A stretch of DNA of 24,259 nt from a virus. The position numbers and the translations under genes were made by a program. The DNA lies in IMG/VR virus record IMGVR_UViG_3300047550_003830, positions 1-24,259 of that record; one strand, 5' to 3'. This document shows positions 9 through 17,912 of this stretch, piece after piece. The first letter of the stretch is position 1; the number at the start of each line of letters is the position of its first letter. The notes below the pieces were generated by a model. That model saw only the letters and a program-made list of their open reading frames with translations. It searched no databases and was not told the origin of the DNA.

Positions 9-89
9 ATGACTAAAGTTCTTAACACAGTAATGTTTATAGTTTGGGGAGTAATTTTTACTCTCTTTTTGTTTAAATTAATAAGTTAA
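9..89 (+). CDS. 26-residue single-helix membrane peptide
   Basis: This short open frame starts at an ATG preceded by a purine-rich stretch and ends with TAA, 12 bases before the next gene. It encodes 26 residues, most of them hydrophobic (Val, Met, Phe, Ile, Trp, Leu from about residue 8 to 24), with a Lys near each end, so it would form one transmembrane helix. The next gene also encodes a membrane protein, which favours a real gene over chance. Tiny membrane peptides of this kind in phages include holin-like, superinfection-exclusion and antiholin proteins, but nothing here picks one. The left edge of the window hides its upstream neighbour, so it could also be the tail of a longer frame. 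Confidence 0.4.
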   Translation: MTKVLNTVMFIVWGVIFTLFLFKLIS

Positions 90-101
90 AACGATGAAAA
101 A

Positions 102-296
102 ATGAGATGGTATTTTATTTCTATAGTAGCATTATGTATAATATCTGGAATATTACTGTATTATTATACAAATGCTAAAGGGTTGATTATTATTATATCA
201 ATAATCGGAGTATTAAATTTATTGGCTGCGTGTTTCTATAATATGATTGTAGAAATATATGATGAAGCAGATAAAATAGACCAATCAGAAAATTAA
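102..296 (+). CDS. Small two-helix membrane protein
   Basis: A 64-residue protein with two hydrophobic segments, about residues 4-22 and 28-50, separated by a short polar turn (Thr-Asn-Ala-Lys-Gly), followed by an acidic C-terminal tail rich in Asp, Glu and Asn. Such a hairpin would sit in the inner membrane. The start ATG follows an A-rich stretch (aaacgatgaaaaa) and the gene sits 12 bases after the membrane peptide at 9-89. Two-helix proteins of this size are typical of class II holins, but no endolysin gene is in the window, so lysis is only one possibility; membrane remodelling or exclusion would fit equally well. I do not recognise a specific family. Confidence 0.6.
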   Translation: MRWYFISIVALCIISGILLYYYTNAKGLIIIISIIGVLNLLAACFYNMIVEIYDEADKIDQSEN

Positions 297-301
297 AAAT
301 T

Positions 302-544
302 ATGAGTAGATATACTAAAGAATTAGAAGACGGTAGAAGTGTTGTTTATGGTTTTGACCATGCATTAGGTTATTTTATTGATGTTTTTGGAATTCCTGAC
401 GAAGATGGAGTAAGTGAAAGTTTAATTGAAGAGTCTAGTTTTTTAACTAGGATGTCTAATGGCAAAATGATTGAGTTAATGGATATGTTTGAACTTCCTG
501 AATCTCACATTGAGCAAGTGGCTATGGATTTACCAATTAGTTAA
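302..544 (+). CDS. Acidic hypothetical protein, 80 residues
   Basis: An acidic 80-residue soluble protein with no signal peptide or membrane segment. It starts five bases after the preceding stop and ends two bases before the radical SAM gene at 547, so the two are almost certainly cotranscribed. The second half is helix-like (Gly-Lys-Met-Ile-Glu-Leu-Met-Asp-Met-Phe). The position directly upstream of the photoproduct-lyase-like gene could mean a shared job, but the sequence shows nothing to define one. I do not recognise the family. Confidence 0.65.
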   Translation: MSRYTKELEDGRSVVYGFDHALGYFIDVFGIPDEDGVSESLIEESSFLTRMSNGKMIELMDMFELPESHIEQVAMDLPIS

Positions 545-546
545 TT

Positions 547-1425
547 ATGAGCAAACTTATAGAAACATTAACAAGAAAAAGTATGGAGATTAAGTTTAGC
601 GGTAGAAGTAGCGACTATATTACTCCATCGTTTGGTTTTGGCTGTGTTCTTGAGTGTGCTTATTGCTACATGAAAAGGCACAAGCCTAAAGGCTTAACAG
701 TTGCAGAGAATTACAATGATATTTTAACAGCTGTTAATAATCATGCTTATTTCTATGCAGATGTAGAGAAACCAAATCAAACTGATCCTGAGTTTATAAC
801 TTACGATCTAGCTTGTAATGAAGATTTCGTAGCACATGCTAAGTATCATCAATGGGAAAAAATATTTGCATTTTTCAGAGATCATCCTATTGCTAAAGCT
901 ACTTTGGCTACTAAGTATGTAAACAAAGAGCTATTAAAGTTTGATCCGCACGAAAAGGTTAGAATAAGATTTAGTCTAATGCCTGAAGAGTATAGACAAG
1001 TTTTAGAACCTAATACGAATACTATTTATGAAAGGTTAATAGCTGTAGAAAAATTTATAGACGCTGGTTATGAAGTTCATCTTAATTTTAGTCCTGTTAT
1101 TGTTCATGATAATTGGTTGGATAAGTATAAAGAATTATTTGAGGTTGTACAATACAATGCAAGAACTTATGCTTGGGATACAGATGCTGTAAAATCAGAA
1201 GTAATTTTTCTTACCCATAACTCTCAGAAACATGTATATAATTTAGAACATGAAATTCCTGGTGAAGATTTATTATGGCGACCTGACATTCAGGAACACA
1301 AAATATCTTCTTACGGAAGTATCAATCTAAGATATCGTCATGATTTAAAAGCTAACTTTATAGAGGAATTTAAAAGCTTACATGCAGAAATAATTCCTTG
1401 GAACACAATTAGGTATATTTTTTAA
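547..1425 (+). CDS. splB-like: Spore photoproduct lyase-like radical SAM enzyme
   Basis: A 292-residue radical SAM enzyme. The cluster-binding motif CX3CX2C is Cys33, Cys37, Cys40, and the residues between and after it (Tyr39, Tyr41) fall where the radical-relay tyrosines Tyr97 and Tyr99 of Bacillus subtilis SplB lie. Cys90, in the string TYDLAC, aligns with the hydrogen-donor Cys141 of SplB. The later blocks (LATKYV, then RIRFSLMP, then AGYEVHLNFSPVIVHDNW) also follow the SplB pattern. Spore photoproduct lyase reverses the thymine dimer formed by UV in spore DNA, using a 5'-deoxyadenosyl radical. It is somewhat shorter than SplB, missing part of the N-terminus. The alignment is from memory of the family. 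Repair of the dimer, or radical chemistry on another thymine-derived base, are both possible in a phage. Confidence 0.85.
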   Translation: MSKLIETLTRKSMEIKFSGRSSDYITPSFGFGCVLECAYCYMKRHKPKGLTVAENYNDILTAVNNHAYFYADVEKPNQTDPEFITYDLACNEDFVAHAKYHQWEKIFAFFRDHPIAKATLATKYVNKELLKFDPHEKVRIRFSLMPEEYRQVLEPNTNTIYERLIAVEKFIDAGYEVHLNFSPVIVHDNWLDKYKELFEVVQYNARTYAWDTDAVKSEVIFLTHNSQKHVYNLEHEIPGEDLLWRPDIQEHKISSYGSINLRYRHDLKANFIEEFKSLHAEIIPWNTIRYIF

Positions 1426-1441
1426 TTTAAAAACAAAAACA
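1426..1441 (+). promoter_or_regulatory. A-rich translation leader
   Basis: The bases tttaaaaacaaaaaca lie directly between the stop at 1425 and the ATG at 1442. Bacteroidota do not rely on Shine-Dalgarno pairing and favour unpaired A-rich leaders. A similar string precedes the genes at 8913 and 9485, so it is read as the initiation region. It supports the start chosen for the 59-residue gene. Confidence 0.5.
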
Positions 1442-1621
1442 ATGGCAAAGTATAAAATAGAAGAAGAAAAAGTATATGGTATGACTATAGGCTTTTATGT
1501 AAAAGTAAAAAGAAATTGGTGGTCTTTATGGAGATATCTTAGAGCTACTGACGGTACTATTACTAAGTATGAAACTAAAAAAGGAGCACAAGCCGCTATT
1601 AACTTAAGATCAATTAAATAA
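1442..1621 (+). CDS. Small basic hypothetical protein, 59 residues
   Basis: A 59-residue basic protein beginning Met-Ala-Lys-Tyr and ending Ser-Ile-Lys before TAA. The start has an ideal A-rich leader. The middle holds a Trp-Trp and a further Trp (NWWSLW) followed by a strand-turn-strand pattern and the helix KKGAQAAINL, so it is probably a compact alpha-beta domain. No signal peptide or membrane helix. The downstream ATG is only one base after its stop. I do not recognise a family. Confidence 0.65.
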   Translation: MAKYKIEEEKVYGMTIGFYVKVKRNWWSLWRYLRATDGTITKYETKKGAQAAINLRSIK

Positions 1622-1622
1622 C

Positions 1623-1754
1623 ATGAGTATTTTTAAAGCTGGAATATACGCACTTCTGCAAAAGAAAATGTATCGTAGAACTAAAAGATATATGCAATTT
1701 AAAGAATTGCAATATAAACATGTTTATAACTACGAAGACTCTGATGCAGAATAA
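1623..1754 (+). CDS. Very small basic protein, 43 residues
   Basis: A 43-residue open frame starting at ATG one base after the previous stop. It is strongly basic and aromatic in the first two thirds (Lys-Lys-Met-Tyr-Arg-Arg-Thr-Lys-Arg-Tyr) and ends acidic (Tyr-Glu-Asp-Ser-Asp-Ala-Glu). It overlaps the ATG of the lipoprotein gene at 1744 by 11 bases, typical of the tight packing here. The support is position and spacing only; it could be spurious. No function can be given. Confidence 0.45.
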   Translation: MSIFKAGIYALLQKKMYRRTKRYMQFKELQYKHVYNYEDSDAE

Positions 1755-1905
1755 AATTTTCATATTACTATTACTTTGTTCTTGTAGTTCTAAGATTAAT
1801 TATAGTGTTAAGATAAACACTGATACGTATAAATTACGTGAAAAAATAGTGCATAAACAGACTAAAAAAATGCAACGAAAGCTCAATCGAGCAAGGAGAG
1901 TTTAA
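1744..1905 (+). CDS. Small phage lipoprotein (possible o-spanin)
   Basis: A 53-residue protein starting at the ATG at 1744. It has a classic lipoprotein signal: Lys at position 4, a run of Ile/Phe/Leu, then the lipobox Leu11-Cys12-Ser13-Cys14, so signal peptidase II would leave a lipidated Cys14. The mature part is only about 40 residues and very basic at its end (Lys-Lys-Met-Gln-Arg-Lys-Leu-Asn-Arg-Ala-Arg-Arg). The open frame extends upstream to an ATG at 1720, but that adds eight polar residues before the signal and is less likely. Small lipoproteins in phages are often outer spanins for lysis; others block superinfection at the envelope. No inner spanin partner is seen next to it. It lies two bases before the polymerase gene. 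Confidence 0.6.
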   Translation: MQNKIFILLLLCSCSSKINYSVKINTDTYKLREKIVHKQTKKMQRKLNRARRV

Positions 1906-1907
1906 TT

Positions 1908-3917
1908 ATGATTTATTTAGTAACAGGTCAGCAGGAGATGTTTACTCCTGTTGGCTATTCTATGGCTACTGTAACTGAAGCTTTAGAATACTTGAACACT
2001 TTGGACATTATCGGCTATGACTCAGAAACTAGAGGATTTGATCCTTATACTTGTGAATTGTTGTCCATTCAGCTAGGCGATGGAAATAAGCAATTTGTAG
2101 TAGATACTAATACTATTAACATTAACCTGTTTAAACAGCTGTTAGAAACTAAGGAGCTTATTATGCACAATGCTAAGTTTGATCTTAGGTTTCTGTATCA
2201 TAAACAAATAGTGCCCAAAAAGATATTTGATAGTTTTCTTGTAGAAAGAATCCTCACAACTGGTATAGACACTGCTAGAAGATCTTTAGATGCTGTAGCT
2301 TACAAATATTGTAAAATAGAGCTTGATAAGTCTATACGCGGTAATATACATCGTGAGGGATTATCTGCAAGAGTAATCAAATATGCTGCTGATGATGTGA
2401 AATATCTTCATCAGATCAAGCGCAAACAAGAAGTGGCGTTGGCAGAAAAAAATCTTACTCGCACTGCTAGTCTTGACAATGAATTTGTGCTTGTACTCGC
2501 TTATATAGAATACTGCGGTATGTATCTAAATCCTGAAGAATGGCAAAAGAAATGCAATGATGATCTAAAAGATATGCAAGCTATTAAGGATAAATTAGAT
2601 CAGTTTATCTTAGATAACTCTGATAAATATCCTCAATTTGTAGATAATCAGCTGTCTTTGTTTGACGAAGGTATAACCTGTAGAATAAATTGGAATTCAG
2701 AAAAACAAGTAATACCATTGTTTAAGTCTTTAGGAATTGACACTCTAACTAAAGATAAAGAAACAGGTTTTATGAAAGATTCTATTGACAAAAAAGTTCT
2801 AGGCCCGCAAAAGAAAAAACATCCTTTGGTGGGAATATATTTAGAATACAAAGAGAATCAAAAAGAAGTTAGTACTTATGGTGAGAACTGGTTTGAGTAT
2901 ATCAACAAAGTAACTGGTAGAATCCATAGTAATTATACTCAGATCATGAATACTGGTCGTTTGTCTTCTGGTCAAAAGGGTAAACCAAAACAAGGCATAC
3001 CTCAACAGCCAAATATGCAGAATATTCCTTCTGACAATAGAACAAGATCTTGTTTCCAAGCCCAGCCAGGCAACTTACTAATTGTAAGTGACTATAGCGG
3101 TCAAGAGCAGATTGTTCTTGCTAACAAATCTATGGATAAAGATCTTTTAAATTTCTATGCTCAAGGTCTTGGAGATATGCATTCTTTTATCGCTTCAAAG
3201 ATTTTTCCTGAGTTATCAGGATTGTCTTTAGATGAAATTAAAGATCAGCATAAACAGAAAAGACAGATCGCTAAAGGTGCAGGTTTTGCAATTAATTATG
3301 GCGGCACTGGTATCACTATAGCACAAAATCTAAGTCTTTCTCTTGAAGAAGGCGAAGAAGTATACAAAGCTTATTTTAAAGCGTTTCCTGGGCTTGCTAA
3401 TTACTTTAAACAAGAAAAGCAAAGAGCGCTAAGTCTGGGTTATATTCAGTTCAATGATATCAGCAATAGAAAGTGCTTTATTCCATTCTTTGAAGAGTAT
3501 CAAAAATTACATAAAGAAATTTATGAAACTGAAGGATTTTGGGATAACTATAAGTTGGAAAAGTCACAAGATTCTACTATCTTTAAGAGTTATTTCAAGC
3601 CAAAAGTTAGAGAGTATTTTATGAAGAGAGGCGACATCGAAAGAATGTCGTTAAATTATCCTATTCAAGGTTCTTCTGCGGATATTACTAAACTTGCGGG
3701 TATTTATTTCTTTAGATATTTGTTGGAGAATAATCTAATGTTTAAAGTGCTTTTACCAAATGTAGTTCATGATGAATGGATTGTTGAGGCTCCCGAAGAA
3801 CTAGCGGAAGAGTTGGCAGATGTTCTTAAGGATTGCATGGAAAGAGCAGGTGATTTATTCTGTAAAGCGGTAAAGCTTAATGCAGATCCTTGTATAACTA
3901 AATTCTGGAAACACTGA
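1908..3917 (+). CDS. polA-like: Family A DNA polymerase with 3'-5' exonuclease
   Basis: The 669-residue phage replicase. The N-terminal proofreading domain has all three exonuclease motifs: Asp38-x-Glu40 (DSE), Asn88/Asp92 in HNAKFD, and Tyr159/Asp163 in YAADD. The polymerase domain has motif A DYSGQE (Asp395), motif B with Arg452, Lys456, Phe460 and Tyr464 (KRQIAKGAGFAINYG), and motif C His621-Asp622-Glu623. There is no 5' nuclease domain, as in T7 gp5. Phe460 at the O-helix position that governs dideoxynucleotide choice is as in E. coli Pol I, not the Tyr of T7. A segment of about 70 residues between motif B and the QGSSAD block is rich in charged and aromatic residues and longer than in Pol I. 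It acts with the DnaB-like helicase, primase and SSB encoded downstream. Its TGA overlaps the next ATG by one base. Confidence 0.95.
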   Translation: MIYLVTGQQEMFTPVGYSMATVTEALEYLNTLDIIGYDSETRGFDPYTCELLSIQLGDGNKQFVVDTNTININLFKQLLETKELIMHNAKFDLRFLYHKQIVPKKIFDSFLVERILTTGIDTARRSLDAVAYKYCKIELDKSIRGNIHREGLSARVIKYAADDVKYLHQIKRKQEVALAEKNLTRTASLDNEFVLVLAYIEYCGMYLNPEEWQKKCNDDLKDMQAIKDKLDQFILDNSDKYPQFVDNQLSLFDEGITCRINWNSEKQVIPLFKSLGIDTLTKDKETGFMKDSIDKKVLGPQKKKHPLVGIYLEYKENQKEVSTYGENWFEYINKVTGRIHSNYTQIMNTGRLSSGQKGKPKQGIPQQPNMQNIPSDNRTRSCFQAQPGNLLIVSDYSGQEQIVLANKSMDKDLLNFYAQGLGDMHSFIASKIFPELSGLSLDEIKDQHKQKRQIAKGAGFAINYGGTGITIAQNLSLSLEEGEEVYKAYFKAFPGLANYFKQEKQRALSLGYIQFNDISNRKCFIPFFEEYQKLHKEIYETEGFWDNYKLEKSQDSTIFKSYFKPKVREYFMKRGDIERMSLNYPIQGSSADITKLAGIYFFRYLLENNLMFKVLLPNVVHDEWIVEAPEELAEELADVLKDCMERAGDLFCKAVKLNADPCITKFWKH

Positions 3918-4381
3918 TGAAGTATGAAAATAACAGTTTTGAAGAGCATATAAACTCTTTAATAAATTCCGCTATGAGATTAAGTAGTTACTTACCTCTT
4001 AATAGATATTTTAGAGCTGTAGAAAATGTACAAAACAGTTACATGGTTGAGTTACGTAGAATCTATGCAGTAAAACTTTTAAAAGAAGGATTATCTAATT
4101 CTGATATAGCAAGATTACTTTGTAAAGATCATGCTACTATTAGCTATCTAGTAAAAACTACTAATGAAGACGACCCTATAAGAAAAGAAATTATAGACAA
4201 ATGCGTAGACTGGATTTCTCAAGGATTGTATCCTGTAACTTATACAGAAATAGTAGTGTCTTCTGAGCATAAAACAGGCTTTAAAAGTATAGTTAATTAC
4301 GAATTAAAATCAATTGAAAATGGGGGAAATAATATTAGACAGGACGGCTCGGCAGATCCAAGGATTGAGGCGGTGGCGTGA
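3917..4381 (+). CDS. DnaA domain IV-like DNA-binding protein
   Basis: A 154-residue protein whose residues 47-80 resemble the DNA-binding domain IV of DnaA: a helix (RRIYAVKLL), the turn KEGLSNSDIARLL, and then CKDHATISYLVK, which echoes the DnaA signature GRDHTTV. No ATPase domain is present, so this is a stand-alone binding module, not an initiator in full. It starts in an ATGA overlap with the polymerase stop. The setting between polymerase and helicase suggests a role at the phage origin or in recruiting the helicase; that is inference. Its last 62 bases are also read in another frame as the start of the helicase gene. It could instead be a transcription regulator, since the same fold occurs in those. 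Confidence 0.65.
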   Translation: MKYENNSFEEHINSLINSAMRLSSYLPLNRYFRAVENVQNSYMVELRRIYAVKLLKEGLSNSDIARLLCKDHATISYLVKTTNEDDPIRKEIIDKCVDWISQGLYPVTYTEIVVSSEHKTGFKSIVNYELKSIENGGNNIRQDGSADPRIEAVA

Positions 4382-5555
4382 GGCTAATTTTTGTGGTATT
4401 GCTGAATATCCAACAGGTTTTGGCAAGACGTATACTGCAATTATGGCTATTAAAGGTATGATACCTAAGAAGAATATTACTTCTTGTCTTGTGGTAGTGC
4501 CTACGTTAGAACTTAAATCTCAATGGGAAACTGAGCTAAAGAAAAACAAAGTTACCATAGCGAAAGTAATGGTAATAAACTCTGCTATTAAACATCTGCA
4601 TAAAGTAGATATGTTAGTGCTTGATGAGGTTCATAGATATGCAGCTGAAAGTTTTAGAAATATATTCAACACAGTAAGCTGTGATTATATTTTAGGCCTA
4701 ACTGCAACTCTTGAACGTGAGGATGGCTTTCATGAAGTTATTCTAGAGTATCTAACTGTGTTTGATCAGATTTCTGTAGATGAGGCTTTAGATAACTGCT
4801 GGATAGCGCCGTATAAAGTTTACAATATTCCAATAGAGTTATCAAATGACGATCAAATAGAGTATAACAAAGCCAATAATGCATTTAAGCATTTTGCAGC
4901 TAAACTTGGCCACGGCGCCAATGCTTTTAAGAACGCTACTAGTTATTTGAAATCATCTGATAAAGCTTTACAAGGACAAGCAGGTGCTTATTATAATTCT
5001 CTGCGTAAGCGCAAAAGTATTTGCCAGAATAACTCTAATAAGATCTTAGCTACTAAAGCTATTATAGATGTAATGGGAGGTAGAAATGGTTTGATATTTA
5101 GCGCGACTACTGAGTTTGCTGAGAATCTACAAGATTGTCTAGGCGATATTTGTATGACTTTTCATAGTAAAATCAAACGCAAAGAACAAGAGCTGATAGT
5201 CAAAAGATTTAAAGACAAACGAACTAAGGTTAGATTTTTAAGTTCTGTACAAGCTCTTAATGAGGGTTTTAATGTGCCTGATTGTTCTCTTGCTATTATT
5301 GCTGGATCTACAAGCACTAAGCGTACTTTCATACAGCAATTAGGTCGTGTAGTCAGGAAAACTCCTGATAAAGAAGCTGTAATTGTTAATCTCTATACTC
5401 CTGGCACACAAGAAGAAGTGTGGATGAAAAAGAGATTAGAAGGAATTAATAAAGACAGGATTGCAATATGCACACTAGACGAATTTCTAAAACTGTACGA
5501 AAATGGAATTAACACTGAGTACCTCGAAACTGAAGAGCTCCCAGCTGACGCCTGA
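4320..5555 (+). CDS. Superfamily 2 DNA helicase (XPB/UvsW-like)
   Basis: A 411-residue SF2 helicase. From the start at 4320: a Q-tip region (RTARQIQGL) at 8-16, Walker A PTGFGKT at 31-37, VVVPTLEL (motif Ia) near 58-65, the DEVH box at 102-105, GLTATLER (motif III) near 126-133, then the second RecA fold with LIFSAT, and motif VI QQLGRVVRK near residue 340. GLTATLEREDG is typical of the XPB/UvsW branch, which remodels branched DNA, unwinds R-loops and stimulates recombination-dependent replication. The frame stays open to a TTG at 4314, but the ATG at 4320 with the A-rich leader (caattgaaa) is preferred. It overlaps the preceding gene by 62 bases and the next by 53. Confidence 0.92.
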   Translation: MGEIILDRTARQIQGLRRWREANFCGIAEYPTGFGKTYTAIMAIKGMIPKKNITSCLVVVPTLELKSQWETELKKNKVTIAKVMVINSAIKHLHKVDMLVLDEVHRYAAESFRNIFNTVSCDYILGLTATLEREDGFHEVILEYLTVFDQISVDEALDNCWIAPYKVYNIPIELSNDDQIEYNKANNAFKHFAAKLGHGANAFKNATSYLKSSDKALQGQAGAYYNSLRKRKSICQNNSNKILATKAIIDVMGGRNGLIFSATTEFAENLQDCLGDICMTFHSKIKRKEQELIVKRFKDKRTKVRFLSSVQALNEGFNVPDCSLAIIAGSTSTKRTFIQQLGRVVRKTPDKEAVIVNLYTPGTQEEVWMKKRLEGINKDRIAICTLDEFLKLYENGINTEYLETEELPADA

Positions 5556-6063
5556 TCAAATTTATATGTTGTTCTTGCTGTATTATCAAAAGTTTGATGA
5601 TATAGCAGAAATATATGGAAAAGATAAAGCAAAAGTTATTAGGGAATCTTTAGAGACTACAAATTATTTGCTAAGTCAAGGCGGTAAATTTACCGAAACT
5701 ATTATAAGCAAGAAACATGTAGAAAAATTACTTGGTATTAGAGCGGATCAGATTAATTTCTGGGAATTTTATAATTGTTATCCTGTAAAAGTTGGAGCTC
5801 GTGTTCTTAGAGCAGCGGGCCCCAACTCACAGGTAGCATTAAAACATGAAAAGAAATATCTGGCAAGAGTTAGAACTATTGCTCAACATCAGTTAGCTAT
5901 ACAAGCTATTTCTGCATTTGTCGCTAAGAAAAAGCTCGTCAATGAGCTACAATATTTGCCAAATATGGAAACAGTAATGAATAACTCGCAATGGGAGCAA
6001 TGGGAAGTATTTATTCAAGAAACAGGAAAGGAGGAACAAGAATGGAACACGGAATCAATTTAG
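5503..6063 (+). CDS. Hypothetical replication-operon protein
   Basis: A 186-residue, mainly helical protein between the SF2 and DnaB-like helicases. The start at 5503 lies 53 bases inside the helicase gene. The next in-frame Met, at 5566, would cut off the block SSQLTPDQIYM, so the upstream start is kept. A central alanine/basic segment (KVGARVLRAAG) is followed by a long helical stretch rich in Lys, Arg and Gln with no membrane segment. No catalytic motif is visible. The place in the operon fits a helicase loader or DNA-binding accessory, but this is inference from neighbours only; I do not recognise the family. Confidence 0.75.
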   Translation: MELTLSTSKLKSSQLTPDQIYMLFLLYYQKFDDIAEIYGKDKAKVIRESLETTNYLLSQGGKFTETIISKKHVEKLLGIRADQINFWEFYNCYPVKVGARVLRAAGPNSQVALKHEKKYLARVRTIAQHQLAIQAISAFVAKKKLVNELQYLPNMETVMNNSQWEQWEVFIQETGKEEQEWNTESI

Positions 6064-6359
6064 ATTATAGTAAACAAAATTTTGAAAGAGAGATTAGGTA
6101 CATTAACGAACTATTGCGCCACATGAAATTAGAGCATAAAGTAGCTAGAAAACTAGTAGCTAAAAGAACTAATTATGAAAAATGCCTTAGTATTTTAAAT
6201 GGTAGCAAAGAAACTGATTATGATCCAGAAATACCTTTAATAAATTTAAGATCGGATTTGTATTATCTAAATAAACAAGTTGAAGTAGTTCCAAATAGTC
6301 AAAAAATTATTGATCAAATAGAATATGTTACTAAACTTTTAAACGATGGCAAAAGTTAA
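6042..6359 (+). CDS. Small helical hypothetical protein
   Basis: A 105-residue protein beginning Met-Glu-His-Gly at 6042. The open frame reaches up to 5991, but those 17 residues are encoded inside the preceding gene and look like random sequence (SIYSRNRKGG), so the later ATG is preferred. The string aaaggagg seven bases upstream would be a perfect Shine-Dalgarno in other bacteria. The protein is mainly charged helices with coiled-coil character (residues about 8-45 and 70-100). It overlaps its upstream neighbour by 22 bases and the DnaB-like gene by 14. No function is assigned; its position suggests a partner of the helicase. Confidence 0.7.
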   Translation: MEHGINLDYSKQNFEREIRYINELLRHMKLEHKVARKLVAKRTNYEKCLSILNGSKETDYDPEIPLINLRSDLYYLNKQVEVVPNSQKIIDQIEYVTKLLNDGKS

Positions 6360-7425
6360 ATATTGGGATAGGCTAAAACAAGAGATTGAACGAGGCGAGA
6401 AAGGTTTAAATACGGGTATACCATTTGAAGGTTTTACTACTTTAAGTAATCATATTCAGAATATTCAGCAAAGAAGGTATGATCTAATATTTGCACCGAC
6501 CTCAATAGGTAAATCTGCTTTTTTAGATTCTACTTATGTTTACGGTGCTATTAGTTTTTTGCAGAAAAATCCTGGGTATATTCACGATCTTGAGATTATT
6601 TATTATTCTCTAGAAATTCCTCCTGAAGATCAAATAGCAAAGCATATTGTAAGTTTGATCTGGAAAGAACATGGAATACTTTGTGACACTAATGAAATTA
6701 AATCTAAGGGTAATCTAACAATACGGCCAGAAGTCAAAAAGTTATTGCTAACCTATGAAGAACGTATGAATGAGATTCAAGAGAAGTATATTTATTTTAA
6801 AACAGCTCTTAGTCCAAAGTCTTTGTTTAGGGATTTAGTAAGCTATGCTGAACGACGAGGCGTGTTTCAACGTGATGATGAGGGAAATATTTTGAGTTAT
6901 ACTCCTAATAATCCTGGATTAATCACGCTGATTATCATAGATCATATCGGACATATTAATTACAAAGACTTTAATAGCAAAAAAGAAGCTATAGATATGG
7001 CATCTAAGCATCTTGTGTTTTTCAGAAACATGTGCAATTTTAGTCCTGTTGTTGTATCGCAGATTAACCGTGATAAGAATCAAAAACATCGTCAAGCTGA
7101 AGAAGGTTGGATGCCTGAACTTCAAGATATCAAAGACACTGGTAATCTTGCAGAAGATGCTAATACTGTAATGGGTATAGAAAGTCCATTTTATGTAGGT
7201 GTTGATAACTGTTTAGGCTATGATATCACAAAGTTTAAAGATCGTTACCGACTGCTTAAAATCTTAAAAAATCGTGACGGCAAAAGAAATTTGCTTGTCA
7301 GTTTTTTGTTTATTGGCGAATATGGGGGTTACTATCAATTACCTCCAATAGAAAAGTTAACAGGCAAGCCTGAAGAGCTTAGAAAAATTGATGAATATTA
7401 TCGTAACCAAATAAATAAACAATAA
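6346..7425 (+). CDS. dnaB-like: DnaB-like replicative helicase (RecA-fold core)
   Basis: A 359-residue protein with the C-terminal ATPase fold of DnaB. Walker A is APTSIGKS (residues 50-57), the catalytic glutamate is in YYSLE (Glu90, equivalent to the FSLE block of DnaB), Walker B is LIIIDH with Asp199, VVVSQINRD (about 235-243) is the H3 motif, followed by DIKDTGNLAEDANTVM and a basic arginine-finger region KILKNRDGK (about 305-313). The protein lacks the N-terminal primase-interaction domain of bacterial DnaB, so it is shorter than the usual 450 residues. It would encircle the lagging strand at the phage fork with the primase at 10133. An insertion of about 60 residues between Glu90 and Walker B is longer than usual. 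Confidence 0.88.
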   Translation: MAKVKYWDRLKQEIERGEKGLNTGIPFEGFTTLSNHIQNIQQRRYDLIFAPTSIGKSAFLDSTYVYGAISFLQKNPGYIHDLEIIYYSLEIPPEDQIAKHIVSLIWKEHGILCDTNEIKSKGNLTIRPEVKKLLLTYEERMNEIQEKYIYFKTALSPKSLFRDLVSYAERRGVFQRDDEGNILSYTPNNPGLITLIIIDHIGHINYKDFNSKKEAIDMASKHLVFFRNMCNFSPVVVSQINRDKNQKHRQAEEGWMPELQDIKDTGNLAEDANTVMGIESPFYVGVDNCLGYDITKFKDRYRLLKILKNRDGKRNLLVSFLFIGEYGGYYQLPPIEKLTGKPEELRKIDEYYRNQINKQ

Positions 7426-7922
7426 TGCCAATTGTAAAAACAATCGTAGGAAATATTCCTGAATTATTTAAAGAAGGCAAAGTGCCTAATTTATTAGCAA
7501 ATCCCACTAATTGTCAAAAAGTGATGATAGGATTAGGGGCAGAGCTTGCTGAAGAATTTCATATTATTAATGATGTAGATCATGGTTTTCCTTTACCTGC
7601 TGAATATAGAATAGGCGACTATTCTGCAGTAAGATTAGGAGAGCAAGCTACTATCCTTAATTTCTATGTAATCATGGAACCAAATGGTCATTTTGAATAC
7701 AGCGCATTAAAAAACTGTCTTAAAAAATTATCTAACGAAGCCCAAGCAGCAGGTACTTATATTCAGCTTACTTTTCCTTTAATTACTCCTTCTGAATATG
7801 GAGCTAAATGGGAAATAGTAAAGAGAATCCTTGATACTCAAGAAAACTTACTAATAACTGTAGTTCAACATGATCAAAGAGAAGTACGAGTGGGTGAAGG
7901 AGAAGCTGACTCAGCATCCTGA
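7425..7922 (+). CDS. Macro-domain protein (ADP-ribose binding fold)
   Basis: A 165-residue protein with the layout of a macro domain: the hydrophobic strand and loop NLLANPTNCQ (21-31) where canonical enzymes have AHGCNC, the glycine-containing loop VMIGLGAELAEEF (33-45), the strand TILNFYV (76-82), FEYSALKNCLKKL (90-102), and a final strand ending in ITPSEYGAKWEIV (120-132), where canonical members have GxGLAGGDW. Macro domains bind or hydrolyse ADP-ribose derivatives. The second phosphate-binding loop is degenerate, so hydrolase activity is uncertain. Its ATG overlaps the helicase stop by one base. Phage macro proteins have been proposed to undo host ADP-ribosylation; that role here is inference. 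Another ligand with a diphosphate is possible. Confidence 0.65.
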   Translation: MPIVKTIVGNIPELFKEGKVPNLLANPTNCQKVMIGLGAELAEEFHIINDVDHGFPLPAEYRIGDYSAVRLGEQATILNFYVIMEPNGHFEYSALKNCLKKLSNEAQAAGTYIQLTFPLITPSEYGAKWEIVKRILDTQENLLITVVQHDQREVRVGEGEADSAS

Positions 7923-8166
7923 ATTAAGAGATTCTAATGAAAGATTGTATTATCACTATCTTAAAGAGATAGGTTATGATATGAACAAATCTTTCAAAGA
8001 TGCTCTAAAAGACATGGAAAAAAGAATTATTCCTTATCTAGATAGTTTTGGTCGTGCGTCTCGCAAAGTTCAAGAAGAACATCCGCATTTAAGAGGTAAA
8101 TCTTATGGTAAAAGAAAGGGCGAAAAGCAAGATAAAATACGTCAAGAAATTAGGGATTTGACTTAA
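7870..8166 (+). CDS. Small basic hypothetical protein, 98 residues
   Basis: A 98-residue highly charged protein that starts 53 bases inside the macro-domain gene. The N-terminal half is helical (EKYEWVKEKLTQHPELRDSN); the C-terminal half has the pattern SFGRASRKVQEEHPHLRG followed by KSYGKRKGEKQDKIR, which I associate with short conserved proteins in phages of low-GC hosts, often of unknown function. The positively charged end suggests nucleic-acid binding. No enzyme motif is present. It is the last gene of this tightly overlapping string; a 48-base gap follows. Confidence 0.7.
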   Translation: MIKEKYEWVKEKLTQHPELRDSNERLYYHYLKEIGYDMNKSFKDALKDMEKRIIPYLDSFGRASRKVQEEHPHLRGKSYGKRKGEKQDKIRQEIRDLT

Positions 8167-8214
8167 AATTCAGTATTTTTATTAAGTAGTAAATTAATCT
8201 AAAATCAAACATTT
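8167..8214 (+). promoter_or_regulatory. Leader/possible promoter region of the SSB cassette
   Basis: This 48-base gap, one of the longer ones in the window, ends in an A-rich leader (taaaatcaaacattt) just before the ATG at 8215. It is the natural place for a promoter for the Sak4-SSB genes, but I do not find the Bacteroidota TAnnTTTG box in it, so promoter function is unproven. Confidence 0.35.
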
Positions 8215-8889
8215 ATGGGGCAATTAGTGTTCCTGGTTGGAAAATCAGGTATGGGGAAATCTACCTCACTAAGAAATCTAAATCCAGATGAAACTGTGAT
8301 CATAAACACAGACCAAAAGGCTCTGCCGTTTAAGCAGTTTAATCTAAAGTACAACGAAGAAAAGCGTAATTATCGCAAGACTTCTGATGTTAGTGTAGTT
8401 ATAGCTACATTGAAAAAAGTCAATGATCTTCCTCATGTAAAGACTATTATTATTGATACATGGTCAAGAATTATGACTGATGCTATTATGAATCCCGCAT
8501 TTAGAGCTGAAAAAGGCTTTGACAAATGGACTAAGATGGCAGCTGCCCAGTATGATCTGATAAACTTTATCAATGACTCTATGAGAGAAGATATAATAGT
8601 TTATCTGTTTGCTCATCCTGAAACGCATTTTGATGAAGCAGGTTTTGCTTCTGAGCGTATCGGTGTACAAGGCAAAATGCTAGAGAGATTTGTGCCTGAG
8701 TCATTCAGCACAATTGTTCTTTATGCTGAGATAATCAAAACACCTGGGCAACCTAACAAACATGTATTTAGAACTGTTTCATCAGGCTCTGATACTTGTA
8801 AAACTCCTCTAGATATGTTTGAGGAGACAGCAATAGACAATGACTTGGCTATTGTTAATAATGCAATTCGTGAATATTATTCAATTTAA
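8215..8889 (+). CDS. Sak4-like RecA-fold ATPase (recombination)
   Basis: A 224-residue single-domain ATPase of the AAA_24/Sak4 type. Walker A is GKSGMGKS (residues 9-16), followed by ETVIINTDQKALPF, where related proteins have a similar Asp-Lys/Pro block. Walker B is TIIIDTWS (about 79-86). The strand VYLFAHPETH near residue 125 carries the sensor-like polar residues. Sak4 proteins are phage single-strand annealing or Rad51-like recombinases usually encoded beside an SSB, and here an SSB-type gene lies two genes downstream, which strengthens the call. It begins the 8215-10081 cassette after a 48-base gap. It would act with SSB in recombination-dependent replication and repair. Confidence 0.82.
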   Translation: MGQLVFLVGKSGMGKSTSLRNLNPDETVIINTDQKALPFKQFNLKYNEEKRNYRKTSDVSVVIATLKKVNDLPHVKTIIIDTWSRIMTDAIMNPAFRAEKGFDKWTKMAAAQYDLINFINDSMREDIIVYLFAHPETHFDEAGFASERIGVQGKMLERFVPESFSTIVLYAEIIKTPGQPNKHVFRTVSSGSDTCKTPLDMFEETAIDNDLAIVNNAIREYYSI

Positions 8890-8912
8890 TTTTAAATCAA
8901 AAACAAAACAAC
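8890..8912 (+). promoter_or_regulatory. A-rich translation leader
   Basis: A 23-base gap consisting almost only of A and C with a T-rich head (ttttaaatc, then aaaacaaaacaac), reaching to the ATG at 8913. It matches the leader at 1426-1441 in composition and order and has no Shine-Dalgarno. A strong, unstructured leader fits an abundantly made protein. Confidence 0.5.
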
Positions 8913-9455
8913 ATGGAGAATGTAGTTTGGGGCGAAGTACCCGCACAAAGAACAAGAAAACAGGAGCAATTTTCTCATCCTGTAGTAACAATGTCAGCAA
9001 TTGATAAACCAGGTGCTGGCCGTAAATTTAGTTTTAACAAGGCAGCTCAAGAAGCTCTTGGAATCAAAGGCGAAGACAGAGTTAGCTTTGGTTTTGAAAC
9101 AAACGGTAAAAGAATCTTTATCCGTAAAGCAGAAGGTGATGCTGGTTTTCAGCTAACTAAAACTTGTACTCTTAGTGATAAGAGAACATATGAGTTTATT
9201 GCAAAGCGTTGGGATCTAAACTCAGAAGTAGAGAATCATTTAGCAATTGCTATGGGAGATTCTTATGGTGAGTTTCAATTGATGACCTCTACTGAGCCTA
9301 CAGTTATTAATACTGTAGAAGAAGTAGTTGAAGAAACTGTAATTGAAGAGGAAGTACTTCCAGAGCCTGCAGTAGAAGAAGAAGTAGAATATCATTTAGA
9401 TGCCAAAGTAGATACTGATTCTACTGCAACTGATATTGATGAAGACGTTTGGTAA
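8913..9455 (+). CDS. Acidic-tailed protein beside SSB
   Basis: A 180-residue protein in two parts. Residues about 20-110 form a compact domain (VVTMSAIDKPGAGRKFSF, then an Asp/Arg-rich strand set); residues about 128-180 are a low-complexity acidic tail packed with Glu and Val, ending Asp-Ile-Asp-Glu-Asp-Val-Trp. The final acidic residues with an aromatic end are the hallmark of SSB-type tails that dock partner proteins and keep the protein off single-stranded DNA. The next gene product ends in the same way. The N-terminal domain is not one I can name: the GxGRKFSFNKAAQEALGI string is reminiscent of swapped-hairpin AbrB DNA-binding folds, but that is weak. It sits between Sak4-like ATPase and SSB with a strong A-rich leader. 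Confidence 0.7.
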   Translation: MENVVWGEVPAQRTRKQEQFSHPVVTMSAIDKPGAGRKFSFNKAAQEALGIKGEDRVSFGFETNGKRIFIRKAEGDAGFQLTKTCTLSDKRTYEFIAKRWDLNSEVENHLAIAMGDSYGEFQLMTSTEPTVINTVEEVVEETVIEEEVLPEPAVEEEVEYHLDAKVDTDSTATDIDEDVW

Positions 9456-9484
9456 TTTTTTTAACTTTTTAAACACACAAAACA
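9456..9484 (+). promoter_or_regulatory. A-rich translation leader
   Basis: A 29-base gap with a T-rich part (ttttttaacttttt) and then aaacacacaaaaca directly before the ATG at 9485. It resembles the leaders at 1426 and 8890 and sets the start of the SSB gene. Confidence 0.5.
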
Positions 9485-10081
9485 ATGATTAATTTGAATG
9501 ACGCGTCTTTTGACGCAAAAGAAGGAGCAGCAATTTTTAATGACGGTAAAGCTGGTATTGCTGAAAATGTAACTTTGTCTATTAGCAAAAAGAAACCTGA
9601 AGATAAAGAAGGTTCGCCTGATTACAAGCTTAGTTTTACTGATGCAGCGGGTGGATCTTGCAACAGTTCTTTCTGGTATGTAGAAAAAGCTACTGAGTAT
9701 TCTACTATCGATGAGCAAGTAGCTAAGCAAGGTAAAGTAATGAAGCATGTGATTCATGCTATCTATGGAAACACTTATCAGTTTCCTAGCTTTAACTCTG
9801 CTCGTGAGATGCTAGATGGCTGTATGAAAATCATCCGTGATGGTTTGGCTCAAGGACCTAAATTCCGTGTGTTTGCTAACTATGGTACTACTAGTTCTGT
9901 AAAGAATTATATTCAGCCTCGCAGCTGGGTGCCATTTATGGAGCCAATGAGTGTTGCTCTTGCAGACACAAGATTGAAACCAGGAAATCTTGACGCTATG
10001 GCTAAGCTTCAAGCAGATAACGTTGCTGCACCTGCAGCTTCTTCTGCGGCAGCTGCTACAGTAGATGGAGATGATTGGTAA
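9485..10081 (+). CDS. ssb-like: Single-stranded DNA-binding protein, phage type
   Basis: A 198-residue protein that starts Met-Ile-Asn-Leu-Asn-Asp-Ala-Ser-Phe-Asp-Ala-Lys. The core (about 9-165) contains the block GIAENVTLSISKKKPEDKEG and aromatic strands (SSFWYVEKATEY; NTYQFPSFNSAREML); this resembles the SSB family found in crAss-like phages as I remember it. The end is an Ala-rich linker (AAPAASSAAAATV) and the acidic tip Asp-Gly-Asp-Asp-Trp, a clear SSB-type docking tail. It would coat single-stranded DNA at the fork and recruit primase, Sak4-like ATPase or nuclease. The gene has a strong A-rich leader, comparatively GC-richer codons than its neighbours, and a strong terminator right after it, all consistent with high expression. 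Confidence 0.75.
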   Translation: MINLNDASFDAKEGAAIFNDGKAGIAENVTLSISKKKPEDKEGSPDYKLSFTDAAGGSCNSSFWYVEKATEYSTIDEQVAKQGKVMKHVIHAIYGNTYQFPSFNSAREMLDGCMKIIRDGLAQGPKFRVFANYGTTSSVKNYIQPRSWVPFMEPMSVALADTRLKPGNLDAMAKLQADNVAAPAASSAAAATVDGDDW

Positions 10082-10098
10082 TAATCTTTAACTTTACA

Positions 10099-10127
10099 GG
10101 AGGGAGTTCTAACAGCTCCCTCCTTTT
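10099..10127 (+). terminator. Intrinsic terminator after the SSB gene
   Basis: GGAGGGAG at 10099-10106 pairs with CTCCCTCC at 10116-10123, with two more weak pairs inward, and the stem is followed by TTTTATTTT. It sits 17 bases after the SSB stop and only 5 bases before the primase ATG at 10133, so the primase cannot have its own promoter after it. Readthrough, antitermination, or a promoter within 10082-10098 is required. Confidence 0.85.
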
Positions 10128-10132
10128 ATTTT

Positions 10133-11143
10133 ATGGAAGAAATAAATCTTAATTCTATTACGTTTAACAGCTTAATTACTAGAGAAGATATATTAAAGCA
10201 TGTTACCCAAGAAGAAATTTATAGTTTTTATTTAGGAGAAGACGTAAGCAAACTAGGTGTTTTTCATAGTCCTCTTCGTGAGGATAATATTCCATCATTT
10301 GCACTTTATTTTCATAAAGTTAATCGTAACATATTAATGTTTAAAGATTTTGCTACAGGAGACTGTGGCGACTTTGTGATATTAGTACTTAAAATGTTTA
10401 ATCTCTCTTATTCAGAGGCATTAAAGAAAGTTGCATTTGATATGAAACTGGCTGAGTTTAATATTAACGTGTCCCAAACTCCTGTTCAATATACTAAAAT
10501 TATGCAGAAAGATTCTGTAGAACTAGGTATTAAGATTAGACCTTGGCAGGTACGTGATAAGATTTATTGGTCAGCATTTGGAATTAGAAAAAAAACTTTA
10601 GAAAAGTTTAATGTTTATCCAATTGATTATGTGTTTTATAATACTACTGCTGTAAAAACAAGTGACTATGCTTATGCATATGTAGAAATTAAAGACGGCA
10701 AAGTAAGTTATAAAATCTATCAGCCATTAGAAACTAAAATTAAAAAATGGATTAACAATGCAAATTATACTGTTCATCAAGGCTATACTCAGTTACCTTC
10801 TGTTGGAGATTTATTAATTATAACAAAATCTTTAAAAGATGTAATGAGTCTTCATGATTGTATGGGAGTAAGTGCAATAGGCTTACAATCAGAATCAGTT
10901 ATGATGAAAGAATCTGTTATGGACGAGTATAAATCTAGATTTAAAAAAGTAATATGTCTGTTTGACAATGATGATGCAGGTAAGAAATTATCTGAAAGTT
11001 TTACTGCTAAATACAATGTCCCGCACTTCTTTGTGCCTGAATTACCTAAAGTAACAGACTTTAGTGACTTAGTAAAAGCAGTAGGTGTAGAAGAAGCGGT
11101 TAAGATTATTAATACTAAAATTGAAGACATATGGAATTTGTAG
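10133..11143 (+). CDS. dnaG-like: DnaG-like primase with altered active site
   Basis: A 336-residue protein with the layout of DnaG primase. Residues 40-100 follow the zinc-binding domain (VFHSPLREDNIPSFALYF, then GDFVILVLKMFNLSYSEAL) but lack the Cys/His ligands. The TOPRIM domain follows: ITKSLKD at 230-236, CMGVSAIGLQSES, and VICLFDNDDAGK at 273-284 with the metal-binding Asp set. In TOPRIM enzymes the first motif ends in a conserved Glu (EGYMD in DnaG); here the position is Lys232, with Asp236 kept. The primase should synthesise the RNA primers for lagging-strand replication with the DnaB-like helicase at 6346. The loss of Glu suggests either a known phage variant that uses other acidic residues or an inactive, structural TOPRIM. 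It ends 13 bases inside the next gene. Confidence 0.78.
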   Translation: MEEINLNSITFNSLITREDILKHVTQEEIYSFYLGEDVSKLGVFHSPLREDNIPSFALYFHKVNRNILMFKDFATGDCGDFVILVLKMFNLSYSEALKKVAFDMKLAEFNINVSQTPVQYTKIMQKDSVELGIKIRPWQVRDKIYWSAFGIRKKTLEKFNVYPIDYVFYNTTAVKTSDYAYAYVEIKDGKVSYKIYQPLETKIKKWINNANYTVHQGYTQLPSVGDLLIITKSLKDVMSLHDCMGVSAIGLQSESVMMKESVMDEYKSRFKKVICLFDNDDAGKKLSESFTAKYNVPHFFVPELPKVTDFSDLVKAVGVEEAVKIINTKIEDIWNL

Positions 11144-11328
11144 ATTTTGTAGAATGGTTAGAAAATTTGCCTACTCAAACATTAACAGATGAGTTAAAAG
11201 AGAGTATTATTACTGAAGTAGACAGTTTAATTTTTGATATAAAAGAAACAGTGTTTGCAGAAGGTATTACAGAAGGCAAAGAAAAAACTGTAGAAATTAT
11301 TAAAGATTTTTTAGATGATAATTTATGA
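11131..11328 (+). CDS. Small acidic hypothetical protein, 65 residues
   Basis: A 65-residue acidic protein, rich in Glu, Asp, Leu and Ile, mainly helical, starting Met-Glu-Phe-Val-Asp-Phe. It overlaps the primase end by 13 bases and the VWA gene start by 4, so it is an integral part of the operon. No membrane segment, signal or motif is present. An acidic partner or inhibitor of a neighbouring DNA-binding protein, such as the primase, is conceivable but not shown. Confidence 0.65.
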   Translation: MEFVDFVEWLENLPTQTLTDELKESIITEVDSLIFDIKETVFAEGITEGKEKTVEIIKDFLDDNL

Positions 11329-12500
11329 ATAAACAAGAATCTCTTAGTAAAATTAGTAAAGATCTAATGCTAAAAGAGCCTTATTATGGGTTTTTCTTAA
11401 TGGCACTAAATAGAATCTGGACTAATAAAGTTCCTACTGCTGGTGTCAGCAAAGATGGGATTAATTATAGGTTATATATAGGTGAAGATTTTTGGACTAG
11501 TTTATCAGATAGTCATCGTAAAGGTTTGCTTAAACATGAGTTACTTCATATTGCTTTTGGACATCTAACAATGTATTTTAAATTCTCCAATAAGCGCCGC
11601 GCTAATGTTGCGATGGACATGGAAATAAATCAATACATTGATGAAGAAAATCTGCCTGAAGGAGGAATTAAGCTCAGCGATTATGAAGATTTAAATTTGG
11701 ATCCTAAAGCTGGTTGTAGATATTACTATGATAAGCTTAAAGAACTAGAAGATCAAAAAGAAAAAAACGGATCTTGTGGTAATAGCAACATGGATAATCT
11801 TCTTGATGGCATAAAAAACGGAAACATTCCTGATCATAGTACTTGGGAAGAATTTGAAGGTTTAACAGAAGCTGAAGAGAAATTATTAGATAAGCAGATT
11901 CAAAGGATACTTAACGATGCCGAACAAAAAACTAAATCTCGTGGAGGACATGTGCCTGATGAGATAGCGGACAAAATTATTCTCGAAGAAATTCTTCCGC
12001 CAAAGTTTAACTGGAAGAATTACATCCGAAGATTTACTGGAGTAAGTACAAAGATCTATACGAGAAAGACTCGTCGCAAGGAGAATCTTAAGTTTCCTGA
12101 TAATCCTGCTTTAAAAATTAAAATGCGCCAAAAGATGCTGGTTGCTATCGATACTTCTGGATCTGTAAATAACGAAGAACTCAAAGAATTTATGAATGAG
12201 ATTCATCATTTACATAAAGCAGGAGTTGACATCAGAATCATTCAGTGTGATACGGTAATAAGATCTTCTAAAGATTATGACGGCAAATTTGAGCTAGACA
12301 TAGTAGGTCGTGGGGGAACTAGCTTTGATCCTGTATTAGAGTTTTATGGGGCACACAAAGAATACACTAGTTTGATTTATTTTACTGACGGAGAATGTTC
12401 TACAAGCATGAAACCGTCAAAGCCTGTGTTGTGGGTTATATCTGGGCAATCTCATATGCCAGAAAACCTTCCAGGAAAAGTTATAAAATTAGAATTATAA
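11325..12500 (+). CDS. VWA-like metallopeptidase (DUF2201 type)
   Basis: A 391-residue protein with two domains. The N-terminal part has the zinc-protease motif HELLH (His71-Glu72-Leu-Leu-His75) in KHELLHIAFGHL, and a following MDMEINQYID block (97-106). The C-terminal part is a von Willebrand factor A domain with a MIDAS set: Asp276-Thr-Ser-Gly-Ser280, Thr332 in GRGGTSFDP and Asp355 in YFTDGE. This is the architecture of DUF2201 VWA-like predicted peptidases. These proteins commonly pair with a MoxR-type AAA ATPase, and one is encoded 12 bases downstream. In bacteria MoxR-VWA pairs act in metal insertion or protein assembly. Why a phage has one in its replication block is unknown. Confidence 0.85.
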   Translation: MNKQESLSKISKDLMLKEPYYGFFLMALNRIWTNKVPTAGVSKDGINYRLYIGEDFWTSLSDSHRKGLLKHELLHIAFGHLTMYFKFSNKRRANVAMDMEINQYIDEENLPEGGIKLSDYEDLNLDPKAGCRYYYDKLKELEDQKEKNGSCGNSNMDNLLDGIKNGNIPDHSTWEEFEGLTEAEEKLLDKQIQRILNDAEQKTKSRGGHVPDEIADKIILEEILPPKFNWKNYIRRFTGVSTKIYTRKTRRKENLKFPDNPALKIKMRQKMLVAIDTSGSVNNEELKEFMNEIHHLHKAGVDIRIIQCDTVIRSSKDYDGKFELDIVGRGGTSFDPVLEFYGAHKEYTSLIYFTDGECSTSMKPSKPVLWVISGQSHMPENLPGKVIKLEL

Positions 12501-12512
12501 AAGAAAAACATT

Positions 12513-13682: not shown

Positions 13683-13684
13683 TC

Positions 13685-14824: not shown

Positions 14825-14840
14825 ACAAACATGCGTAATT

Positions 14841-17073: not shown

Positions 17074-17292
17074 ATGGCAAAGACAGACAAAGAAAAGATC
17101 AAGGATCTTAAGGAAAAACTAAAAGCAGAAAAAGCTGAAAATAAGTTTTTAATAGCTGCTTTTAAAAGAGTCGAACAAGAAAAGTATTATTATAAGCAAA
17201 GGTCTGAAACGCTTAGAAAAGAATTAATCAAATGCAACGAGGAAAAGAATTCTGGGTTAATCAACTCGGAGAATCCTGGGCTACTGTTTTAA
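17074..17292 (+). CDS. Short coiled-coil protein
   Basis: A 72-residue, strongly charged protein. Residues about 4-58 are a continuous helix rich in Lys and Glu with hydrophobic positions spaced as in a coiled coil (KEKIKDLKEKLKAEKAENKF). The last 15 residues are polar and loop-like and are encoded in a 61-base overlap with the uracil-DNA glycosylase gene. It is the first gene after the tandem terminators. A dimerisation or adaptor role, perhaps for the glycosylase, is possible, but nothing in the sequence fixes it. Confidence 0.7.
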   Translation: MAKTDKEKIKDLKEKLKAEKAENKFLIAAFKRVEQEKYYYKQRSETLRKELIKCNEEKNSGLINSENPGLLF

Positions 17293-17912
17293 AGCCTGTA
17301 CTAAAAACCGAAGAAATGGACAAGATTATAAATGGTCTCGTATTTGACTATGCTTTTGTCCATATGTATCCTAAAGAAAAAAAGGATATATTTAGAGCAT
17401 TCAGGCTTTGCCCGTTTGATAATCTTCGAGCAGTAGTAATAGGTACAGAACCTGGGCCGTTTACAGGTACAGGGCCGTTGGCATTCGCTGATACATCTTC
17501 TATACATACTAATGCTTCAGCTAGTAAAATTCGTGAGTGCGTGGCTAATCATAAAAAAGAGTTGTATCTAGATTTTGACACAACTTTTGAACATTGGGCC
17601 AGTCAAGGCATTTTAATGCTAAATCGCAGTTTAACTTGTCGTAATGGAGAATCTAGAACACATAGAGAAGACTGGAAAAAATTCTTTGGCATGGTGCTGT
17701 ATAGTATTACTCTTTATAAACAAGGCACTATATTTTTGCTTTGGGGTAAAGAAGCTCAAAAATACTGTGATTTATTATCAAATGATCACCATGTATTTAC
17801 TTGGGAACATCCTATGGTAGCTGATAAACAGTTTAGAAAATGGGAATGTCCAAATTTTGAACAAGTAGACTTATTATTAAAAACTCATGGAAGAGAGCCT
17901 TTTATTTGGTGA
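17232..17912 (+). CDS. ung-like: Divergent uracil-DNA glycosylase-like protein
   Basis: A 226-residue protein with family 1 UDG architecture. Recognisable blocks: RAVVIGTEPGPFTGTGPLAF (67-85, the water-activating motif), GILMLNRSLTCRNG (126-139, with the uracil-binding Asn131, cf. Asn204 of human UNG), IFLLWGKEAQK (167-177) and WEHPMV (191-196, with the His193 that matches His268). The key motif is changed: GQDPYH has become GTEPGPF, so the general-base Asp is Glu73, the Tyr that blocks thymine (Tyr147 of UNG) is Gly75, and the following His is Pro76. The HPSPLS loop, including the Leu that enters the helix, has become HPMVAD. Usual UDGs remove uracil from DNA; with these changes it may act on a bulkier base, act weakly, or serve as a non-catalytic DNA-binding subunit. 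It overlaps the upstream gene by 61 bases and the downstream one by 26. Confidence 0.82.
   Translation: MQRGKEFWVNQLGESWATVLKPVLKTEEMDKIINGLVFDYAFVHMYPKEKKDIFRAFRLCPFDNLRAVVIGTEPGPFTGTGPLAFADTSSIHTNASASKIRECVANHKKELYLDFDTTFEHWASQGILMLNRSLTCRNGESRTHREDWKKFFGMVLYSITLYKQGTIFLLWGKEAQKYCDLLSNDHHVFTWEHPMVADKQFRKWECPNFEQVDLLLKTHGREPFIW

What the first reader, a model, noticed from the sequence alone, without database searches (positions are those of the whole stretch)
547..1425. Spore photoproduct lyase homologue with full catalytic set in a phage
The CX3CX2C cluster ligands, the two tyrosines around the last cysteine (Y39, Y41) and the hydrogen-donor cysteine (C90 in TYDLAC) all fall where those of B. 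subtilis SplB do, and the distal blocks follow the same order. The host is probably a non-sporulating Bacteroidota member, so there is no obvious spore DNA to repair. It may reverse the dimer in UV-damaged phage DNA, or act on another thymine derivative, perhaps with the unusual UDG.
Basis: partly seen in the sequence, partly recalled or inferred. Interest (0 to 1): 0.65.

Follow-up and report, generated by a model that had tools for sequence, protein, structure and literature searches.

The report
Phage-borne spore photoproduct lyase-like enzyme
Environmental relatives of crAssphage (viruses of Bacteroidota) widely carry a shortened, apparently fully equipped version of an enzyme that bacterial spores use to undo UV damage in DNA, which suggests that these viruses repair damaged thymines in their own DNA in the dark.

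Summary
Confirmed: window 547-1425 encodes a 292-aa radical-SAM protein of the spore photoproduct lyase (SPL) fold. Sequence (PF20903 E 2e-24; TIGR03886 E 9e-95) and a confident model (pLDDT 90; Z 29 to G. thermodenitrificans SPL, next fold Z 14) agree. Cluster cysteines C33/C37/C40, relay tyrosines Y39/Y41 and donor C90 align with SplB C91/C95/C98, Y97/Y99 and C141.

It is not a SplB orthologue. It belongs to the poorly characterised "SPL family protein" branch of non-spore-formers, as a distinct clade (100/100 support) lacking the N-terminal ~60 residues. At least 574 IMG/VR stretches encode relatives; all 106 phage copies checked keep the donor Cys, while 27 of 80 sampled bacterial relatives have Glu or Thr there.

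The phage is crAss-like: 95% identical over 16.5 kb to a contig with crAss capsid, terminase and portal, which supports a Bacteroidota host. A link with the UDG is not supported: UDG is a standard crAss gene, found without SPL.

Most likely it reverses a UV-made thymine dimer, plausibly spore photoproduct, in phage DNA; the substrate is untested. I found no published phage SPL. Some relatives carry a split intein inside the iron-sulphur motif.

The parts
547..1425 (+). SPL-like radical SAM gene, 292 aa, phage-type (no N-terminal extension)
643..669 (+). C33-x3-C37-x-Y39-C40-Y41: [4Fe-4S] ligands and relay tyrosines
   Evidence: aligned to SplB C91/C95/Y97/C98/Y99; present in 103 of 103 testable phage copies
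748..780 (+). residues 68-78, insertion relative to SplB ending in KPNQ, typical of the TIGR03886/phage branch
   Evidence: alignments
814..816 (+). codon of C90, aligned with H-donor C141 of SplB (C140 of Gt SPL)
   Evidence: Cys in 106 of 106 phage copies
1291..1335 (+). C-terminal beta-hairpin (residues 249-263); SplB R305-Y306 correspond to S255-Y256
   Evidence: DSSP of the model, alignment
302..544 (+). 80-aa ORF directly upstream, no family match; not the missing SPL N-terminus
1908..3917 (+). family A DNA polymerase, crAss type; next large gene downstream
6346..7425 (+). DnaB-like helicase (phage replication module)
17232..17912 (+). family-1-like UDG with altered motif I (GTEPGP); ordinary crAss module gene, not a shown partner

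Best explanation
A crAss-like phage gene for a light-independent, direct-reversal DNA repair enzyme that works like spore photoproduct lyase. A [4Fe-4S] cluster on C33/C37/C40 would cleave SAM to a 5'-deoxyadenosyl radical, which takes H from C6 of a thymine dimer; the linkage breaks, C90 returns an H atom, and Y41 (helped by Y39) relays the radical back so that SAM is regenerated. The likeliest substrate is 5-thyminyl-5,6-dihydrothymine (spore photoproduct), or a close thymine photoproduct, formed in phage DNA by sunlight, perhaps favoured by the dense, water-poor packing in the virion, and repaired early in infection. Shown here: fold, collinear catalytic residues, their invariance across phage copies, purifying selection, crAss-like genome. 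Inferred: activity, substrate, timing and the packing argument.
For: Model pLDDT 90, VIA Z 29 over 278 residues to SPL against 13.9 for the next fold; Foldseek E 4e-18 against 7e-5. All experimentally important catalytic positions listed in PMC3742179 are present and invariant: CX3CXYCY in 103/103 and donor Cys in 106/106 phage copies, although the donor is lost in 27 of 80 sampled cellular relatives, so its retention is informative. dN/dS 0.08-0.17. Gene sits next to the DNA polymerase in the replication module. No photolyase, PF03013 glycosylase or ThyA in 25 SPL-bearing viral records, so SPL is the only direct-reversal UV enzyme I found in them. Cellular relatives: UVC-induced in Curtobacterium (PMC12029717); LexA-linked SPL homologues (PMC3323433). 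No such SPL in INPHARED crAss records, where 114 records match the G009 capsid.
Against: SP is a minor product in ordinary hydrated DNA, and its formation in these virions is unknown. The phage branch shares many invariant residues with TIGR03886 that differ from SplB (R20, R44, H66, N77-Q78, H178, N180, H224-N225, H229, N232, W244, Q249, R262, K268, R289), and the hairpin Arg of SplB (Bv R305) is Ser/Gln/Asn, which hints at another substrate. No TIGR03886 member with proven SP lyase activity was found in the library. The N-terminal region is missing. Several of the 25 records are fragments, so absences are weak.
Confidence: 0.5

Rival explanations
1. Same radical chemistry, different nucleic-acid substrate: the enzyme reverses or modifies another thymine lesion or a modified thymine, in phage or host DNA.
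For: TIGR03886/phage-specific invariant residues and a KPNQ insertion just before the strand that leads to C90, both absent from SplB; hairpin Arg not kept. A large part of the same family has Glu instead of the donor Cys and no obvious replacement Cys, so the branch as a whole may not do standard SP lysis.
Against: The phage clade itself keeps every known SPL catalytic residue. No ThyA in 25 SPL-bearing viral records and ThyX above cut-off in only one, so no sign of a thymine-modification pathway, though several records are fragments.
Confidence: 0.28
2. A host-directed repair gene: the phage makes it to keep the UV-stressed host productive rather than to mend incoming phage DNA.
For: Relatives occur in UV- and desiccation-exposed bacteria (Deinococcus, Pontibacter, Rufibacter, Spirosoma, Arthrobacter).
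Against: The gene is rare in Bacteroidota: only the seed genome passed the TIGR03886 cut-off among 148 searched. It lies beside the phage polymerase. The phage clade is separate from host copies.
Confidence: 0.12
3. Not DNA repair: a radical SAM enzyme recruited to RNA, nucleotide or peptide chemistry.
For: Other radical SAM enzymes share the barrel (Z up to 13.9).
Against: The Z gap of 15 to SPL, conserved C90 and the SPL-type C-terminal hairpin.
Confidence: 0.08

Closest known systems
SplB, spore photoproduct lyase of Bacillus/Geobacillus (TIGR04070; PDB 4fhc-4fhg, 4k9r, 4rh0)
   Same: Fold (Z 29), CX3CX2C, Y97/Y99, donor C141, K175, R192/R194, S196 positions, C-terminal hairpin with Tyr
   Different: About 21% identity; no N-terminal ~60 aa; S143 is Glu; hairpin Arg is Ser; KPNQ insertion; phage replication module instead of a splA-splB locus
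TIGR03886 'spore photoproduct lyase family protein' of non-spore-formers
   Same: 41-49% identity over the shared region, same branch-specific invariants; Bacteroidota members share the donor Cys
   Different: Phage clade lacks the N-terminal extension; many cellular members (Actinomycetota, Cyanobacteria, Deinococcus, some Pseudomonadota) have Glu or Thr at the donor position
Clostridium acetobutylicum SPL (PMC5368176)
   Same: SPL family
   Different: Its donor Cys (C74) lies on the other side of the pocket; the phage protein has the Bacillus-type position
crAss-like phages (Crassvirales) of gut and culture
   Same: Replication module, capsid, portal, terminase; UDG
   Different: None of the INPHARED records has this SPL

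Membership tests
SPL superfamily (Pfam PF20903) | Profile score over the curated cut-off | tested here: met
   86.3 bits against 27
SPL superfamily | SPL fold, clearly above other radical SAM proteins | tested here: met
   Z 29 against 13.9; Foldseek E 4e-18 against 7e-5
SPL superfamily | CX3CX2C cluster ligands | tested here: met
   C33, C37, C40; 103 of 103 phage copies
SPL superfamily | H-donor Cys at SplB position 141 | tested here: met
   C90; 106 of 106 phage copies
SPL superfamily | Relay tyrosines 97 and 99 | tested here: met
   Y39, Y41
SplB equivalog (TIGR04070) | Score over the equivalog cut-off of 400 bits | tested here: not met
   84 bits; phage clade is far from B. velezensis SplB in the tree
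SplB equivalog (TIGR04070) | Hairpin Arg-Tyr (B. velezensis R305-Y306; DNA-contact role recalled from the Gt structure, not tested) | tested here: not met
   S255-Y256: Tyr kept, Arg not
SplB equivalog (TIGR04070) | Sporulation context (splA, spore-former) | tested here: not met
   crAss-like phage replication module
TIGR03886 SPL family protein | Score over the cut-off of 437.55 bits | tested here: not met
   317.7 bits; profile positions 62-346 matched, the first 61 absent
TIGR03886 SPL family protein | Branch-specific invariant residues | tested here: met
   R20, R44, N180, H224-N225, H229, N232, Q249, R262, K268, R289
SPL superfamily | SAM-dependent cleavage of spore photoproduct | not testable with these tools
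   needs the reconstituted enzyme
SPL superfamily | C90 within reach of the 5'-dA/substrate site | tested here: inconclusive
   Alignment and fold superposition place it at C140/C141; model coordinates could not be measured
Crassvirales (phage) | crAss capsid, portal, terminase | tested here: met
   On G009, 95.4% identical to the window over 16.5 kb; the window fragment itself does not reach the capsid gene

The most novel reading that the evidence does not exclude
crAss-like phages carry a compact SPL-type enzyme that directly reverses a thymine lesion other than classical spore photoproduct, a light-independent direct-reversal repair route adapted to packaged viral DNA; its cellular relatives with Glu in place of the donor Cys run a further variant of the chemistry.
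Probability: 0.2. Interest if true: 0.8.

Novelty: new variant of a known kind. Interest (0 to 1): 0.6.

Why it matters
SPL is the textbook spore-only, light-independent UV repair enzyme. Finding a fully equipped, shortened version under purifying selection in hundreds of viral contigs, many of them crAss-like, and in no annotated phage found here, gives a tractable system for an open question: what SPL relatives do where there are no spores. The Cys/Glu split at the donor position turns the loose annotation "SPL family protein" into two testable groups. The split intein at the third cluster cysteine in some relatives is a natural experiment on the same active site.

Tried and rejected
UDG partnership: UDG lies downstream of SPL in 38 of 54 eligible viral loci, most within 3.3 kb, but UDG is equally standard in crAss phages without SPL, so the linkage reflects the replication module. 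Missing N-terminus supplied by ORF 302-544: no similarity. Earlier description of phage SPL: none found in INPHARED (weak, different SPL-like hits only), in BFVD (best TM 0.60, not SPL) or in the literature searches; PHROG 13321 (unknown function) is a weak relative. Thymine-modification pathway: no ThyA, ThyX over cut-off in one of 25. Other UV repair: no photolyase, no PF03013. Direct measurement of the C90 distance in the model: coordinates not available. Ecosystem of the IMG/VR samples: no metadata at hand, so the light-exposed-water idea is untested. Literature on a MoaA intein at the same radical SAM site: recalled, not found in the library. The position of the phage clade relative to Bacteroidota and Glu-type branches is weakly supported (84/50).

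Full report
What is there. The ORF at 547-1425 encodes 292 aa and begins just after the preceding stop. It matches Pfam SPL (PF20903) at 86 bits against a cut-off of 27, TIGR03886 "spore photoproduct lyase family protein" at E 9e-95 over profile positions 62-346, and the true SplB model TIGR04070 at only 84 bits against a cut-off of 400. In the PDB it finds only SPL by sequence. An AlphaFold2 model from 20 phage homologues (pLDDT 90) superposes on G. thermodenitrificans SPL with Z 29 over 278 residues; the next radical SAM protein scores 13.9.

Active site. In an alignment with B. velezensis SplB, C33, C37, C40, Y39, Y41 and C90 fall on C91, C95, C98, Y97, Y99 and C141; an independent profile alignment puts C90 on C140 of the Geobacillus enzyme. 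These are the cluster ligands, radical-relay tyrosines and H donor established for SPL (PMC3742179).

Family. Of the copies fetched, 103 of 103 testable have CX3CXYCY and 106 of 106 the donor Cys. A bacterial scan found 338 loci, of which the best 80 were read. Bacteroidota members have the donor Cys; members from Actinomycetota, Cyanobacteria, Rubrobacter and Caldimonas have Glu or Thr (27 of 80), as do Deinococcus, Methylobacterium, Aureimonas and Nonomuraea plasmid-collection copies. So the Deinococcus gobiensis/deserti "splB" (PMC3314630) lacks the donor Cys, and so do the Curtobacterium sequences sampled here, the genus whose SPL family gene is UVC-induced in PMC12029717.

Tree. Phage copies, two MAG contigs with phage-like neighbours, one short MAG contig and one chromosomal copy in Alkanindiges illinoisensis form one clade with 100/100 support; all lack the N-terminal extension, except that L037 is masked there and cannot be judged. 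SplB is distant. The exact sister of the phage clade is uncertain (84/50), and some long branches meet.

Differences from SplB. The phage/TIGR03886 branch has its own set of invariant residues, an insertion ending in KPNQ before the donor strand, and lacks the hairpin Arg. That is why I commit to "works like an SPL" at 0.5 for SP or a close photoproduct in phage DNA, and leave 0.28 for another thymine substrate.

Phage and host. Window bases 15-16487 are 95.4% identical to G009, which carries crAss capsid (PF23898, E 1e-82), terminase and portal. The crAss capsid is found in 11 of 25 SPL-bearing viral records, several of the others being short fragments. Known crAss hosts are Bacteroidota (established knowledge; the hosts written in INPHARED records, agree). 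No INPHARED record has this SPL, although 114 match the G009 capsid.

Selection and exchange. Pairwise dN/dS is 0.08-0.17. The gene is a mosaic: about 967-1200 is 93-98% identical to L005 but ~70% to L030, while the flanks are ~90% to L030 and 62-83% to L005.

Context. In most relatives SPL lies in a small-gene region with UDG 1-3 kb downstream (38 of 54); in the window it is next to the DNA polymerase. UDG is common in crAss phages without SPL. The window UDG has GTEPGP instead of GQDPYP; its activity is open. No photolyase, PF03013 glycosylase or ThyA was found in 25 SPL-bearing viral records.

Limits. No activity data; no ecosystem metadata; several viral records are fragments; the bacterial sample is the best-matching 80 of 338. 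Statements on hydrated DNA, virion packing and the role of the hairpin Arg rest on general knowledge.

Noticed in passing
L020:7009-8849, L031:500-2361, L032:1954-3785: SPL is broken by a split intein exactly before the third cluster cysteine (N half ...GCxxxCxY|CVT..., C half ...LTHN|CYMKR; Pfam Intein_splicing halves 12-92 and 111-155). In L020 and L031 the halves are separate ORFs. A 302-aa ORF with an HNH-like motif runs antisense through the insert, 75.5% identical between L020 and L031, with mismatches concentrated in its third codon positions.
   Followed up: partly
window 967-1200: Intragenic recombination: this part of SPL is nearly identical to distant phages L005/L006 while the rest matches L030/L002.
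   Followed up: partly
window 17442-17459: UDG motif I is GTEPGP (close relative L202 is the same) instead of GQDPYP; catalytic Asp is Glu and the Tyr that excludes thymine is Gly, so specificity may be changed or lost.
   Followed up: no
L088-L115, L212, L218 and others: Cellular proteins annotated as SPL family protein have Glu or Thr where SPL has its H-donor Cys; Corallococcus L093 in the same clade has Cys.
   Followed up: partly
L039:5001-5864: Phage-type SPL without N-terminal extension in the Alkanindiges illinoisensis chromosome among ordinary genes, a likely phage-chromosome transfer.
   Followed up: partly
L216:3001-3474 (MT835514): A fecal phage scaffold encodes a different SPL-like protein (about 335 aa) without Cys at the Bacillus donor position as judged by eye.
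   Followed up: no
window 19587-24257: Very long minus-strand ORF (at least 1,556 aa, runs off the end) after the replication module, with no clear family match; like the giant ORFs of relative G012.
   Followed up: no
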